From positions 1-64,000 of the forward strand of contig NZ_BSFD01000006.1 in the NCBI RefSeq assembly GCF_027922165.1: a stretch of 64,000 nt of DNA. The letters run 5' to 3'. A model generated the notes under the pieces. That model was not told the origin of the DNA. It searched no databases and was given only the letters and a program-made list of their open reading frames with translations. Source of the stretch: Brevundimonas intermedia (GTDB taxonomy: Bacteria > Pseudomonadota > Alphaproteobacteria > Caulobacterales > Caulobacteraceae). Positions 2,394-58,129 of the stretch are shown here, piece after piece (within the stretch, counting starts at the first letter, position 1; each line of letters opens with the position of its first letter). The translations under genes were made by a program, and so were the position numbers.

Positions 2394-2410
2394 CTGATCA
2401 ACGACAAGTC

Positions 2411-2438
2411 AAAAAAAAGCCGCGCCCGGAGGCGCGGC
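2411..2438 (-). terminator. Intrinsic terminator of the small RNA
   Basis: On the minus strand an 8-bp perfect GC stem (2419-2426 with 2431-2438, loop of four) is followed by eight consecutive T (2418 down to 2411). It defines the 3' end of the small RNA. Confidence 0.92.
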
Positions 2439-2495
2439 ATATAAAGTCTATAGGGAGGAAACGCCCAGGAAGGGCAAGACGCCCGGAGGCGTCGA
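2411..2495 (-). ncRNA. Small RNA of the alpha-r8 / suhB / MmgR type
   Basis: A self-contained RNA gene lies between two protein genes. A near-consensus promoter (2501-2529) predicts a start at about 2495. The transcript of about 85 nt would fold into a GACGCC/GGCGTC hairpin (2478-2493) with loop UCCG, a small GCCC/GGGC hairpin, a single-stranded stretch with UUUCCUCCCU (complement of 2452-2461), and a terminator hairpin with eight U. That ten-base motif, complementary to Shine-Dalgarno sequences, is the hallmark I recall for the alpha-r8 family, which includes MmgR of Sinorhizobium (control of polyhydroxybutyrate). Family membership is inferred from motif and architecture, not from a search. 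Confidence 0.75.
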
Positions 2496-52724: not shown

Positions 52725-53753
52725 TCAGGCGGGTTCTTCGGAAACGCGAACCAGCAGCTTGCCGTCATGATCGCCGGTGAACAAGCGGTTCAGCGAGTCG
52801 ACCGCGCCTTCCAGCCCGTCATCGACGTGAACCTTCCATTTGACCTTGCCTTCGCTCAGCCAGGGTCCCATCTCGGCGACCATTTCACGGGCGAGGGGAG
52901 CGTAGTCGAGCACCAGGAAGCCCTGCACGTTCAGGCGATGGGTGATGATCCGGGCGAAGTTGGGCGACGGCGGAGCCTTGGTGGCGTTGTAGGAGGACAC
53001 CAAACCACAGACCGCCATCCGGCCATGCACCTTCAAACGGTTGAAGACGGCGATCATGATATTGCCGCCGACGTTCTCGAAATTCAGATCGACCCCATCG
53101 GGCGCCAGACGGTCCAGCGCCTCGCCGACATCCTCGTTCTTGTAGTCGATGGCGGCGTCGAAGCCGAGCTCGTCCGTCAACCACGCGCATTTCGCGGGTC
53201 CCCCGGCGATACCGATGACGCGGCAGCCGCGCTGTTTGGCGATCTGTCCCGCGATCGAGCCCACCGCGCCGGCGGCCGCTGAGATCACCAGAGTCTCGCC
53301 CGCCTTGGCCTTCAGCACATCGGTGACGCCGAAATAGGCGGTCAGGCCCGTCATGCCGAGCACGGAAATATTGGCGGTCAGAGGCAGGCCCGGCGCGCGG
53401 TGCACCGGTCGAAGCCCGGCCTCCGGCACGACGGCGTAGTCGGCCCAGCCGCCCGAGGCCGGCATGACCAGATCCCCGACCTTGAACCGATCCGAGCGAC
53501 TGTGCTCGACGATCCCCAAGGTCAGGCCGCGCATCACCTCGCCCAGGCCGACCGGCGGCAGATAGCCCTCGGAATCATTCATCCAGGTGCGGTTGGTCGG
53601 ATCGAGCGACAGATAGATCGTCCGGACCAGAACCTCGGACTCTCTGATGTCGGGGATCCGGCCTTCGACCAGTTCGAGGTCGCCCGGCTGGATCAGGCCC
53701 TTGGGTCGCTGACGCAGCACCCATTGGCGATTGGTCTTTCCGTTCGAGGTCAT
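52725..53753 (-). CDS. NADP-dependent medium-chain oxidoreductase (CurA/PTGR-like)
   Basis: The protein of 342 residues has the MDR fold without zinc ligands. Key segments are YLSLDPTNRTWMNDSEGYLPPVGLGEVMRG, the NADP-binding AAAGAVGSIAGQIAKQRG, FENVGG, and GLVSSYN. It resembles leukotriene/prostaglandin reductases and the curcumin reductase CurA, which reduce conjugated double bonds. It leads a two-gene operon with the hot-dog protein. The substrate is unknown. Confidence 0.9.
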   Translation of the reverse strand: MTSNGKTNRQWVLRQRPKGLIQPGDLELVEGRIPDIRESEVLVRTIYLSLDPTNRTWMNDSEGYLPPVGLGEVMRGLTLGIVEHSRSDRFKVGDLVMPASGGWADYAVVPEAGLRPVHRAPGLPLTANISVLGMTGLTAYFGVTDVLKAKAGETLVISAAAGAVGSIAGQIAKQRGCRVIGIAGGPAKCAWLTDELGFDAAIDYKNEDVGEALDRLAPDGVDLNFENVGGNIMIAVFNRLKVHGRMAVCGLVSSYNATKAPPSPNFARIITHRLNVQGFLVLDYAPLAREMVAEMGPWLSEGKVKWKVHVDDGLEGAVDSLNRLFTGDHDGKLLVRVSEEPA

Positions 53754-53828
53754 CGTCTATCCTCCGCAGGTTTTCTTTGAGGACCATGGTGGCCCGGTCT
53801 CGCGCGACGGTCGAGGCCCGCCGCAAAG

Positions 53829-53942
53829 AAAAAGGCGACCCCTGAGGGCCGCCTTGAAGTGGCATCATCGAGAATGAGGCGCGGAGGCGACAGATTGGCT
53901 TTCGCCAATCTCAAGTCGGGGGGGCGTCGCCGCCTCCGCAAT
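53829..53942 (-). ncRNA. GsrN-like general-stress small RNA
   Basis: An EcfG-type promoter (53948-53972) and an intrinsic terminator (53829-53855: AAGGCG/CGCCTT stem with a mismatch, then TTTTT on the minus strand) bound a transcript of about 114 nt. Near its 5' end a run of seven C follows GGCGAC, and a perfect hairpin GATTGGC-GAAA-GCCAATC and a GTCGCCTCC segment allow a stem that presents the C-run in a loop. GsrN of Caulobacter is an EcfG-dependent RNA with a C-rich loop that regulates katG. No protein frame of quality is present. Identity with GsrN is inferred from promoter, size, C-rich loop and location. Confidence 0.72.
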
Positions 53943-53947
53943 GCAAT

Positions 53948-53972
53948 AACGACGACCTTGATTTGCGGTTCC
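53948..53972 (-). promoter_or_regulatory. EcfG/SigT promoter of the GsrN-like RNA
   Basis: GGAAC (53968-53972, minus strand), 16 nt, CGTT (53948-53951). It has the same geometry as the promoters of phyR, nepR and the others in this locus. Confidence 0.8.
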
Positions 53973-54033: not shown

Positions 54034-54058
54034 GGAACGTCGGTTTCCACATCGCGTT
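54034..54058 (+). promoter_or_regulatory. EcfG/SigT promoter of the small membrane protein gene
   Basis: GGAAC (54034-54038), 16 nt, CGTT (54055-54058), 36 nt before the ATG at 54095. It is divergent from the GsrN-like RNA promoter, 62 nt away. Confidence 0.75.
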
Positions 54059-54094: not shown

Positions 54095-54445
54095 ATGACG
54101 CATCAAGACCCTTCCTTACGAACTGTAAAGCCGACAGAGGCTGGCCAGCCCGTTAGCGCTCGATCAACCCGCCAAGGCAGGCCGGGAACGCGGATCCTGT
54201 GGCTGCTGATCATTTCCGGCGGCGCGGCGGCCGTCCTGCTTCTGGGGATCTGGTTCTTCAGCCAGGGCGGGCTATCAAGCACCAACGCCAATAACGGCGA
54301 TCAGGCTACAGATGCTCAAGCCTTCCAGGGCGATGCCGCAACCCCGCCGGCCGCCGACGCGCCCACCGGACCGACCGGCGAGGCAAGGCCGGCCCCCACA
54401 GGAGAAACGCCGAACGTCAACGCGCCGACCGCGCCCTCCAACTAA
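54095..54445 (+). CDS. Small single-span membrane protein, unrecognised
   Basis: The protein of 116 residues has a basic N-terminal 30 residues, one membrane helix (about 34-56, ILWLLIISGGAAAVLLLGIWFF) and a C-terminal region of some 60 residues rich in Pro, Ala, Thr, Asn and Asp. The topology would place the tail in the periplasm. I know no family for it. It sits between the GsrN-like RNA and phyR, with its own EcfG promoter and GGAAG near the ATG, so it is probably a general stress gene. The frame is open upstream to 53963. Confidence 0.72.
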   Translation: MTHQDPSLRTVKPTEAGQPVSARSTRQGRPGTRILWLLIISGGAAAVLLLGIWFFSQGGLSSTNANNGDQATDAQAFQGDAATPPAADAPTGPTGEARPAPTGETPNVNAPTAPSN

Positions 54446-54506: not shown

Positions 54507-55301
54507 TTAAGCCGCTTCTTTGTGGCGCGAGGGATGGAAGAACAGCGCCTGGCTGATCGCCGCCTTCACCGTCTCCGGCTGGAAGGGCTTGGTGATCAGG
54601 AAGGTCGGCTCGGGGCGCTCCCCGGTCAGCAAGCGTTCCGGGAAGGCGGTAATGAAGATCACCGGCACATCCATGCTCTTCAGGATTTCCTTGACGGCGT
54701 CGATGCCGGACGATCCGTCAGCGAGTTGGATGTCCGCTAGGACCAGGCCGGGCTTGTGACGCGCGACGGCCTCGATCGCTTCCTCATGCGTGGTGGCGGC
54801 TCCGGTGACACGGTGTCCCAGTTCCTTCACCAGGCTCTGGATGTCGGCCGAAATGATGGCTTCGTCCTCGATCACCAAGACGTCGGTCGCCAGTTCGGCG
54901 TCGATGTCGGACTGAGCGTCGGCGATCAGGCGTTCCACGTCCCGCGCATCGGCGGAGAGGATCTGGGCGGCCTCGGAGGGCGTGAAGCCCTCAAGCGCAG
55001 TCAGCAGAAAGGCCTGGCGAGACCGGGGCGCGATGCGCAACAGGCGGCTGGATGCGTCCGAACCGCTCTCGGCGCCGATTCCGTCCTCAAGCTGGGCGCC
55101 GGTCGAGGACCAGATGGCGTGGAAGACGTGATAGAGCGCCACACGCGGGGTCATCTCCGGCGAAAGCTGCTGCTCGCCGGCGGCGAGAGCCTCCAGCGCG
55201 ACGCGCACATAGTTGTCTCCAGTCGCCTGGTCGCCGGTAAGCGCCCGCGCATAGCGACGGACGTAAGGCAGATGCGGCGCAAGTCTGGCCAGAAGGCTCA
55301 T
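54507..55301 (-). CDS. phyR: General stress anti-anti-sigma factor PhyR
   Basis: PhyR sequesters NepR when phosphorylated and so frees EcfG. The 264-residue protein has a sigma-like N-terminal domain (about 1-130) and a C-terminal receiver with acidic pocket E145/D146, phosphoacceptor D190 in LVLADIQL, the FATGUY-type motif FITAFPERLL and K238. The start MSLLARLAPH is that of Caulobacter PhyR. It is divergent from nepR-ecfG and has its own EcfG promoter. Confidence 0.96.
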   Translation of the reverse strand: MSLLARLAPHLPYVRRYARALTGDQATGDNYVRVALEALAAGEQQLSPEMTPRVALYHVFHAIWSSTGAQLEDGIGAESGSDASSRLLRIAPRSRQAFLLTALEGFTPSEAAQILSADARDVERLIADAQSDIDAELATDVLVIEDEAIISADIQSLVKELGHRVTGAATTHEEAIEAVARHKPGLVLADIQLADGSSGIDAVKEILKSMDVPVIFITAFPERLLTGERPEPTFLITKPFQPETVKAAISQALFFHPSRHKEAA

Positions 55302-55364
55302 ATAGTCAGTCCCCGACAAAATTCGCTGGATCGTCTCACAGGACGCAGCGCTACAAGAGCTGGA

Positions 55365-56320: not shown

Positions 56321-58129
56321 GTGACGGAGGAAGCCAGACCCGACCCGGCAGCCGCACAGCCGCGGCTCGAGCGGAAGTGGAACGCCGCCCGATTTCAGGG
56401 AATTCGTTTCCGGCTGGGCTTGGCCATGGCTCTGGCCCTTTTGCCGATCCTCATTCTCATCTTGGTTCAGACTCAAGCCGACTTCAGCGGTCAGGCCGAG
56501 GACCGCAAGGTCGATCTGCAACTCGCCGCGGAGCGCAGCGCAGGCGACATCAAAGCGCGGCTGGACAGCGCCCAGGTCTTGTTGCGAGCGCTGAGCCCGG
56601 ACGCCTTGGGGCCCTACTGCGCGCCCCGGCTGACGGCTCTGGTTGATCGCCTGGATGGCTATGAAGGGCTTTATCGCCTCAGTCCCTCCGGCGACGCCGT
56701 CTGTGCATCCGGCCGCCGCGACGGGCTGCGGTCCGGGGTGGCGCCCGCTGCCCAGGCCGACTGGTTTGAGCGCCTTCGACAGGGCGAGGAGTTGGTCGTC
56801 GTCCGCGCGCCCGCCGGCGCCGGCTATCCCGCCGCCCTTATCATCGCCATTCGGGCGGAAAGGCCTATGGGCCGGTTTGACGGCGCCATGGCGGCCGTCA
56901 TTCCCTTATCGGCGCTTCAGCCCGACATTCAGGACCCCGCCCTGCCCTCGGCCTCGGAAGCCGCCCTGACCGACGGCGCCGGTCGTCTGTTGGTCGCAAG
57001 CGATCCCGGCGCCTTCAAGTTCGCTGACGGCGGCGATGTTTCGGGCTGGGTCGCACGGGCGCGAGATGAAGGCTCAGCCGTCTTCGCCGCCAAGGACAGT
57101 CGCGGCCAGAGGCGCGATTATGCAGGGGCCGTCTTGGCGGGCGGCGACCTGTATGCGCTGCTTTCAGCGCCGGCGCCGGGACTTCTGTCCTGGGCCAGAC
57201 TCAATCCGATCGGCAGCCTGCTGCTGCCTTTGGGCGCATGGTTGACAGCCTTCGCGGCGGTGATGCTTCTGTCCGAGCGCATCTTCATCCGCTGGCTCGA
57301 CTATCTGGAGCGGATCGCCGCCCTCTACGCCAAAGGCCGGTTTTCGGTGCGGCCGTTGCAGGCCATGAACGCCCCGTCTGAAATCCGCACCCTGGCCCGG
57401 ACCCTGGACGAGATGGCCGAAGCCATCACCGTGCGCGACCGCGAGCTGACCGATGCGATCGCCGAGAAGGACGCGCTGATGCGCGAAATCCATCACCGGG
57501 TGAAGAACAATCTCCAGATCATCTCGTCCCTGCTGTCGATGCAGCAGCGGGCCCTGACGGACGCCCCGGCGAAGGCGGCGCTGGGGGACACGCGCCAACG
57601 GATCTCGGCCTTGGCCCTGATCTACCGCACCCTGTACCAGAGCGATGATATCCGCCACGCCGACGCCCGGGAGTTTCTGACCGAACTTGTCGGTCAACTG
57701 GTGGCCAGCGAAGCCGTGCGGGGACCGGTCGTGGTCAGTTCGGTTGAGGCGGACTCTCTGTTCGTCGATCCCGACAAACTGGCGCCCCTCGCGCTGTGGC
57801 TGGTCGAGGCCGTAACCAATGCCCAGAAGCACGCCTTTGCAGGGCGGGGCGGTGCGTTGAGCGTCCGTTTCCGGGTTCATGGAGAAACCTCCACGCTAGA
57901 GGTCGAAGACGACGGTCCCGGCCCCTCGGACGGCGCGGAGGCGGGGGTGGGACGAACCCTGATGGGGGCCTTTGCGAAACAGCTGCGGGGTGAGGCCGAG
58001 TTCGTCGCGGCGCCGAACGGCGGAACCATCGCCCGCATGACGTTCGCCACGCCCGAAGCCTTGTCGCCGACGGATCCTGCGGACAAGACAGGCGGCGCCG
58101 ACGGAACCGGAGCCGTGCGGTCGCGTTGA
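56321..58129 (+). CDS. phyK: Sensor histidine kinase PhyK (HisKA_2 type)
   Basis: PhyK phosphorylates PhyR in response to stress. The 602-residue protein has two membrane helices (about 31-51 and 298-318) around a periplasmic sensor domain of 245 residues, a HAMP-like linker, the HisKA_2 box EIHHRVKNNLQ (phospho-His H392), and the ATPase domain with LVEAVTNAQKHAF and DDGPG. The order phyR, nepR, ecfG, phyK is that of Caulobacter. It starts with GTG 7 nt after ecfG. The sensed signal is unknown. Confidence 0.93.
   Translation: MTEEARPDPAAAQPRLERKWNAARFQGIRFRLGLAMALALLPILILILVQTQADFSGQAEDRKVDLQLAAERSAGDIKARLDSAQVLLRALSPDALGPYCAPRLTALVDRLDGYEGLYRLSPSGDAVCASGRRDGLRSGVAPAAQADWFERLRQGEELVVVRAPAGAGYPAALIIAIRAERPMGRFDGAMAAVIPLSALQPDIQDPALPSASEAALTDGAGRLLVASDPGAFKFADGGDVSGWVARARDEGSAVFAAKDSRGQRRDYAGAVLAGGDLYALLSAPAPGLLSWARLNPIGSLLLPLGAWLTAFAAVMLLSERIFIRWLDYLERIAALYAKGRFSVRPLQAMNAPSEIRTLARTLDEMAEAITVRDRELTDAIAEKDALMREIHHRVKNNLQIISSLLSMQQRALTDAPAKAALGDTRQRISALALIYRTLYQSDDIRHADAREFLTELVGQLVASEAVRGPVVVSSVEADSLFVDPDKLAPLALWLVEAVTNAQKHAFAGRGGALSVRFRVHGETSTLEVEDDGPGPSDGAEAGVGRTLMGAFAKQLRGEAEFVAAPNGGTIARMTFATPEALSPTDPADKTGGADGTGAVRSR
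58103..58127 (+). promoter_or_regulatory. EcfG/SigT promoter of the entericidin-like gene
   Basis: GGAAC (58103-58107), 16 nt, CGTT (58124-58127), at the very end of phyK and 50 nt before the ATG at 58178. It lies inside coding sequence, but position and geometry support function. Confidence 0.75.

What the first reader, a model, noticed from the sequence alone, without database searches (positions are those of the whole stretch)
53826..53972. GsrN-like small RNA next to the general stress locus
Seen: an exact EcfG-type promoter, a 114-nt transcript with a C7 run that can be placed in a loop, a perfect internal hairpin, and a T-tailed terminator, with no protein frame. Known: GsrN of Caulobacter is an EcfG-dependent RNA with a C-rich targeting loop that regulates katG. 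Inferred: this is the Brevundimonas homologue, and it is physically linked to phyR.
Basis: partly seen in the sequence, partly recalled or inferred. Interest (0 to 1): 0.8.

Follow-up and report, generated by a model that had tools for sequence, protein, structure and literature searches.

The report
GsrN stress small RNA, Brevundimonas copy
This is the already described stress-controlled small RNA GsrN, sitting in Brevundimonas beside the stress regulators that are predicted to switch it on; its catalase target from Caulobacter is not recognisable here, and in some relatives its targeting half has been rewritten.

Summary
Minus strand 53829-53939 encodes a full-length member of Rfam RF01529 (CC3552), 114.6 bits against a cut-off of 50, behind an exact GGAAC-N16-CGTT promoter and ahead of a T-tailed terminator. 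In two C. vibrioides genomes the RF01529 hit reproduces the published GsrN landmarks (C53, T54, T64, six cytosines), so RF01529 is GsrN. phyR lies upstream on the same strand in 72 of 74 assessable named loci. Brevundimonas homologues near the stress genes were already reported (PMC5869019), so the element itself is known.

Two results go further. First, the katG target is not recognisable here: both C. vibrioides leaders have the 7-nt complement, but only 1 of 31 Brevundimonas leaders has 7 or more, and genomes lacking katG can keep the canonical loop. Second, in Brevundimonas the two halves of the RNA evolve apart. In one clade of 10 genomes the slot, promoter, terminator and 3' module stay (86-93% identity) while the 5' stem and loop are hardly recognisable (53-61%, shuffles 47-51%). 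Three other genomes have still other 5' halves. All function is inferred; there were no expression data.

The parts
53948..53972 (-). EcfG-type promoter, GGAAC (53972-53968), 16-nt spacer, CGTT (53951-53948)
   Evidence: exact match; same element upstream of many relatives
53829..53939 (-). GsrN / CC3552 small RNA, predicted transcript of about 111 nt
   Evidence: RF01529 114.6 bits over 53833-53937; 5' end by homology to C. vibrioides GsrN
53929..53939 (-). 5' arm of the closing stem (GCGGAGGCGGC), pairs with 53891-53881
   Evidence: fold; helix paired in 100% of cells in 40 relatives, 3 of 11 pairs with changes on both sides
53912..53928 (-). unpaired targeting loop GACGCCCCCCCGACTTG, with C7 at 53924-53918
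   Evidence: centroid fold; the equivalent loop of C. crescentus GsrN pairs with katG (PMC5869019, passages)
53892..53911 (-). internal hairpin AGATTGGC-GAAA-GCCAATCT
   Evidence: fold; 6 of 8 pairs with changes on both sides
53881..53891 (-). 3' arm of the closing stem; the position equivalent to the C. crescentus processing site lies at about 53886/53885
   Evidence: fold; published C53/T54 carried over by alignment, inference
53856..53880 (-). 3' module GCCTCATTCTCGATGATGCCACTTC, the part kept when the 5' half is rewritten in relatives
   Evidence: 86-93% identity in 10 genomes with a rewritten 5' half, shuffles 54-57%
53829..53855 (-). intrinsic terminator with T-tail
   Evidence: 10-bp hairpin; 10 of 10 pairs show changes on both sides among relatives, 91.8% of cells paired
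54507..55319 (-). phyR, general stress response regulator, upstream of gsrN on the same strand
   Evidence: PF22029, PF22233, PF00072
55499..55705 (+). nepR, anti-sigma factor (start codon assumed)
   Evidence: PF18557
55702..56313 (+). ecfG, general stress ECF sigma factor
   Evidence: PF04542, PF08281, position beside nepR
56321..58129 (+). sensor histidine kinase of the stress locus
   Evidence: PF07568, PF07536
54095..54445 (+). 116-aa protein with one hydrophobic stretch, no Pfam match, divergent from gsrN, EcfG-type promoter at 54034-54058

Best explanation
This is the orthologue of the Caulobacter small RNA GsrN. Under stress, PhyR is expected to bind NepR, freeing EcfG, which transcribes the RNA from the GGAAC/CGTT promoter. 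The RNA folds into a closed 5' domain that presents a C-rich single-stranded loop, followed by an exposed 3' module and a terminator. The loop is expected to base-pair with G-rich stretches in target mRNAs and change their translation or stability, and the 5' domain is probably released as a stable processed form as in C. crescentus. Shown here: membership, promoter sequence, covarying structure, linkage. Inferred: EcfG dependence, processing, pairing. The targets in Brevundimonas are probably not, or not mainly, katG.
For: RF01529 114.6 bits. Identity of RF01529 with GsrN: in G244 and G268 the hit, numbered from the G 8 nt after CGTT, gives C53, T54, T64 and six loop cytosines as published, and their katG leaders carry GTCGGGG, a 7-nt complement with four loop cytosines as published. 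Covariation on 40 relatives: 96.7% of cells paired, 19 of 29 pairs with changes on both sides, 0 of 500 shuffles as high on any of five measures. phyR lies upstream on the same strand in 72 of 74 named loci with at least 2.4 kb of upstream sequence. RF01529 is found in 279 of 390 family genomes.
Against: No transcript, no ecfG-mutant data and no pairing data for this genome. The 40 aligned relatives and the 74 synteny loci come from a capped pattern scan that fixes the loop and its edges (three of the 40 aligned rows come instead), so they cannot show that the loop is invariant. Two other genomes titled C. vibrioides (OR37 and T5M6) have C7 and do not fit the published numbering; I take them for other species under that name. 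The published GsrN sequence is in a figure that I could not see.
Confidence: 0.92

Rival explanations
1. GsrN acts here exactly as in C. crescentus, mainly by pairing its C-rich loop with the katG leader and raising catalase-peroxidase.
For: The genome has katG. The katG leader holds GGGGC, complementary to the edge of the C-run, and similar short G-runs recur in several near relatives. G158 has an 8-nt complement.
Against: Longest perfect complement is 5 nt here, and 1 of 31 Brevundimonas leaders has 7 or more, no more than chance, while both C. vibrioides leaders have the published 7-mer. Duplex energy is -14.0 against a shuffle mean of -14.5 (in the six leaders scored before the script stopped, 0.115 to 0.54 of shuffles were as strong). 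Genomes without katG keep the canonical loop, for example G076, 100% complete.
Confidence: 0.2
2. The element is a leader or attenuator of the oxidoreductase gene 52725-53753 just downstream, not a free RNA.
For: In most Brevundimonas loci the oxidoreductase starts about 180-300 nt from the RNA start on the same strand (exceptions with enough sequence: L061, L111).
Against: A strong terminator ends the RNA. No locus titled Caulobacter sp. or Phenylobacterium sp. shows that gene within the sequence held, yet they have the RNA. GsrN of C. crescentus is a free RNA seen on Northern blots (PMC5869019).
Confidence: 0.03
3. The sequence encodes a small protein, or a dual-function RNA.
For: ORFs of 118 aa (TTG) and 79 aa (GTG) overlap it.
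Against: C-run length 6-10 and many indels among relatives, while the base pairs are kept.
Confidence: 0.01

Closest known systems
GsrN (CCNA_R0081) of Caulobacter crescentus, Tien et al. 2018, PMC5869019
   Same: RNA family, promoter, C-rich 5' loop, internal hairpin, 3' exposed region, terminator
   Different: C7 instead of C6; next to phyR instead of distal to it; katG leader lacks the 7-nt site
Rfam RF01529 (CC3552)
   Same: full-length match, positions 1-106 of 106
   Different: nothing essential in the window copy. On the ten rewritten relatives the model stays under its cut-off: 20-39 bits at the right place in seven, no match listed there in G061, G075 and G082
GsrN-like RNAs proposed beside the stress locus of Rhizobiaceae and Brucella (PMC5869019, section 14, passages seen)
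   Same: position by the stress locus, EcfG promoter, exposed 5' loop
   Different: in that paper BLASTn hits were limited to Caulobacteraceae; Rfam Atu_C8 matches the window only at chance level (18.6 bits, E 0.39)

Membership tests
GsrN / Rfam RF01529 | covariance-model score above the curated cut-off over the full model | tested here: met
   114.6 bits, cut-off 50, positions 1-106
GsrN / Rfam RF01529 | EcfG (sigma-T) consensus promoter directly upstream | tested here: met
   GGAAC-N16-CGTT; the published criterion is strict elements with 15-17 nt spacing
GsrN / Rfam RF01529 | exposed C-rich 5' loop closed by a stem that involves the 5' end | tested here: met
   prediction and covariation
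GsrN / Rfam RF01529 | proximity to ecfG, nepR, phyR (typical, not universal) | tested here: met
   about 570 nt from the phyR end
GsrN / Rfam RF01529 | transcription dependent on the general stress sigma factor | not testable with these tools
   needs an ecfG deletion
GsrN / Rfam RF01529 | processing to a stable 51-54-nt 5' isoform | not testable with these tools
   equivalent position at about 53886/53885; no RNA data
GsrN-katG regulatory pair (function in C. crescentus, not a criterion for the RNA family) | 7-nt loop complement in the katG leader | tested here: not met
   5 nt in this genome; 1 of 31 Brevundimonas leaders with 7 or more; both C. vibrioides controls positive

The most novel reading that the evidence does not exclude
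GsrN is a two-part RNA whose targeting half is replaceable. In Brevundimonas the promoter, 3' module, terminator and position are held, while the 5' stem and loop drift and have been rewritten at least twice, so that the same stress signal is wired to a different set of mRNAs in different lineages; katG is a Caulobacter client rather than the ancestral one.
Probability: 0.55. Interest if true: 0.55.

Novelty: already known. Interest (0 to 1): 0.33.

Why it matters
The element confirms that a stress-response small RNA belongs to the core stress locus of this family. The comparison made here suggests that its best known target does not travel with it, and it gives a natural series (canonical, changed loop, rewritten 5' half, lost) in one genus. 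That makes a general question testable: does the client list of a bacterial small RNA change by rewriting its seed while its regulation and 3' half stay fixed?

Tried and rejected
katG loss as the cause of loop rewriting: the eight genus genomes that lack both katG (no TIGR00198 match) and an RF01529 match in the family scan all carry the rewritten RNA. But the rewritten RNA forms one group on the phyR tree (support 93, quick method), two of its ten members (G102, G122) have katG, and five genomes without katG have a canonical loop (G076, G094, G113, G125, G159; completeness 100, 87, 75, 90, 99%). Independent pairs showed no association (median p 1). The rewritten group was labelled by hand from the sequences.

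Second copies: four genomes had two matches. In three of them the second match was fetched (36-37 bits, under the cut-off); none of the seven neighbour proteins searched for is near it, and I took these as chance matches without testing what they encode. The fourth (G106, 35 bits) was not read.

Target search in the window's genome with CAAGTCGGGG: 14 matches, one of them the RNA itself, against 49 for the reversed pattern, so no enrichment. One site lies 38 nt inside an ORF that reads like an ABC-transporter ATPase (my reading, no search); not pursued.

A known family for the rewritten RNAs: 12 loci scanned, 6 of them rewritten. Rfam gave sub-threshold RF01529 matches in 2 of the 6 (36 and 39 bits) and in the two diverged loci G120 and G164 (32-33 bits), and only weak unrelated matches elsewhere.

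Invariance of the loop from alignment A1 was dropped as a claim because nearly all its rows were picked by a loop pattern.

Losses of the RNA: in G144 and G163 phyR and the oxidoreductase are about 160 nt apart with no EcfG-type promoter between, and no RNA was found downstream of phyR in G101 and G095. Four more genomes (G117, G141, G145, G169) gave no PhyR match at E <= 1e-60; G145 and G169 have no PhyR-domain match at E <= 0.001.

Full report
Observation. On the minus strand the window carries GGAAC-N16-CGTT (53972-53948), then GCGGAGGCGGCGACGCCCCCCCGACTTGAG... down to a T-tailed hairpin at 53855-53829. The promoter pattern occurs 9 times in 64 kb against 1.74 expected, and four of the nine cluster between 53948 and 55454, placed to serve gsrN, the small divergent gene, phyR and nepR-ecfG.

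Identity. A scan of the window against Rfam gives RF01529, 'CC3552', at 53833-53937 with 114.6 bits over the whole model. To tie that family to GsrN I used published landmarks (PMC5869019; seen: abstract, outline, sections 7, 29 and 45, and find-passages; figures are not held): internal ends at C53, T54 and T64, six tandem cytosines, and a katG mRNA whose first seven nucleotides pair with the loop including four of the six cytosines. Their katG leaders contain GTCGGGG, a 7-mer with four loop cytosines; that this is the 5' end of the mRNA I take from the paper, and the start codon used there is uncertain. Against this, two further genomes titled C. vibrioides, OR37 (L100) and T5M6 (L062), have C7 and fit no offset, and their RNA lies beside phyR; I read them as other species under that name. 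With that caveat, RF01529 is GsrN.

Context. Pfam names PhyR, NepR, an ECF sigma factor and a HisKA_2/HWE kinase in the order expected of a general stress locus. Of the 118, 74 have at least 2.4 kb upstream of the RNA, and 72 of these 74 have phyR on the same strand 82-1416 nt upstream; the two exceptions are L054 and L109. The promoter is strict in 17 of 24 Brevundimonas loci and in 35 of 47 loci whose titles begin Caulobacter, Caulobacteraceae or Caulobacterales (10 relaxed, 2 none). It is GGAAC with a relaxed GTT-type -10 in 33 of 35 Phenylobacterium loci. RF01529 is present in 279 of 390 genomes of the family, 270 over the cut-off. The paper already states that homologues in Caulobacter, Brevundimonas and Phenylobacterium are typically next to the stress genes, with C. 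crescentus the exception. In the held library only that paper holds both GsrN and Brevundimonas, and only it holds general stress response, EcfG, small RNA and Brevundimonas together. GsrN alone is in 14 papers, of which I looked into PMC5869019 and, by passages, PMC5988900; the others I saw as listings. CC3552 with sRNA and RF01529 are in none.

Structure. On 40 relatives (A1) the three helices keep standard pairs in 96.7% of cells; 19 of 29 pairs show changes on both sides; 0 of 500 shuffles and none of the six slid versions come near. The loop edges in A1 are fixed by the search pattern for nearly all rows, so nothing is claimed from their invariance.

katG. The genome has one katG match, beside what I read as an oxyR-like gene (not searched). 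Its leader offers the loop only GGGGC. Of 34 leaders examined, 31 are from Brevundimonas; one of these (G158, 8 nt) has a perfect complement of 7 or more, G081 and G151 have 6, and so does G089 with a doubtful start; the rest have 5 or fewer, G149 also with a doubtful start. For most of these genomes I used a standard canonical loop rather than each genome's own, which was read only for some; for G079, whose RNA has no such loop, the test has no meaning. By simple counting a 20-nt loop and a 105-nt leader share a 7-mer by chance in roughly one case in twelve, so 1 of 31 is no excess. Duplex energies for six leaders had 0.115 to 0.54 of shuffles as strong. One Caulobacter outside C. vibrioides (G225) also lacked a complement of 5 or more. 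In the genus, 7 of 131 genomes have an RF01529 match but no katG (counted from the lists). Five of these have a canonical loop, among them G076 and G159 at 100 and 99% completeness. The loop is therefore maintained by something other than katG in those genomes.

Rewritten relatives. In 21 of 131 genus genomes the family scan, which uses stricter filters, found no RF01529 match at E <= 0.001. A laxer search and the phyR loci showed the following. Eight have an RNA in the same slot, with an exact EcfG promoter, a terminator and the 3' module CCTCATTCTCGATGATGCG, but a different closing stem and a short loop with a run of four or five cytosines. Three (G079, G161, G168) have still other 5' halves, unlike each other; the G079 fold shows no unpaired C-run, the G168 fold is not convincing (z -1.85), and G161 was not folded. 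Two (G120, G164) have diverged loops. Four show no RNA downstream of phyR (G095, G101, G144, G163), and four have no strong PhyR match (G117, G141, G145, G169). Two further genomes with weak RF01529 scores (G102, G122) belong to the rewritten set, making ten. Identity to the window RNA is 53-61% for the 5' domain (shuffles 47-51%) and 86-93% for the 28-nt 3' module (shuffles 54-57%) in all ten. Eight of the ten were found by position and two by a weak model match at the position; all ten also passed the 3' motif that the script required. For the other rows that motif is a bias: 55 of 76 loci passed, and the 21 that failed are five outgroup loci, four genomes without a found RNA and twelve with a changed or unread 3' part, so overstates how well the 3' module is kept in the genus as a whole. 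Folds of four of the ten leave the short C-run unpaired in a 7-9-nt stretch (z -3.6 to -4.6). On a phyR tree of 71 rows (5 of 76 loci lacked enough phyR) the ten form one group (support 93, quick method, no bootstrap), next to a group of six whose loops are also changed, two of them with C-runs of four or five. Eight of the ten lack katG, but this is one clade and the tree gives no independent support for a link.

Reading. The window element is an ordinary, well-kept GsrN. The C-rich loop very probably pairs with G-rich leaders under EcfG control, but which mRNAs it serves in Brevundimonas is unknown, and katG is a poor candidate. The family in this genus looks modular, with a constant promoter-and-3' part and a changeable 5' targeting part. 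That last reading rests on sequence comparison alone.

Noticed in passing
window 54095-54445 (+): A 116-aa protein with one hydrophobic stretch, no Pfam match and an EcfG-type promoter upstream lies divergently between phyR and gsrN; a tblastn match to it sits in the same place in most Brevundimonas loci and in a part of the Caulobacter and Phenylobacterium loci, at 31-60% identity in the latter and in distant Brevundimonas.
   Followed up: partly
Phenylobacterium loci, for example L037, L039, L077: The gsrN promoter there keeps GGAAC but has a relaxed -10 ending in GTT in 33 of 35 loci, hinting at a shifted -10 preference of EcfG in that genus.
   Followed up: no
G145 and G169 (unnamed Brevundimonas genomes): No PhyR-domain match at E <= 0.001 although G145 is listed as 100% complete; both also lack RF01529 in the family scan.
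   Followed up: no
L178 (G158), katG leader: CTCAAGTCG in the leader is complementary to the 3' edge of the canonical GsrN loop, the only complement of 7 nt or more among 31 Brevundimonas leaders.
   Followed up: no
window 2404-2482 (-): Rfam suhB/mmgR small RNA, 63.1 bits, cut-off 41.
   Followed up: no
L009 and L149 (C10) against their near relative L010 (C7): The cytosine run in the targeting loop changes length between close relatives, as homopolymers do; whether it varies within a population was not looked at.
   Followed up: no
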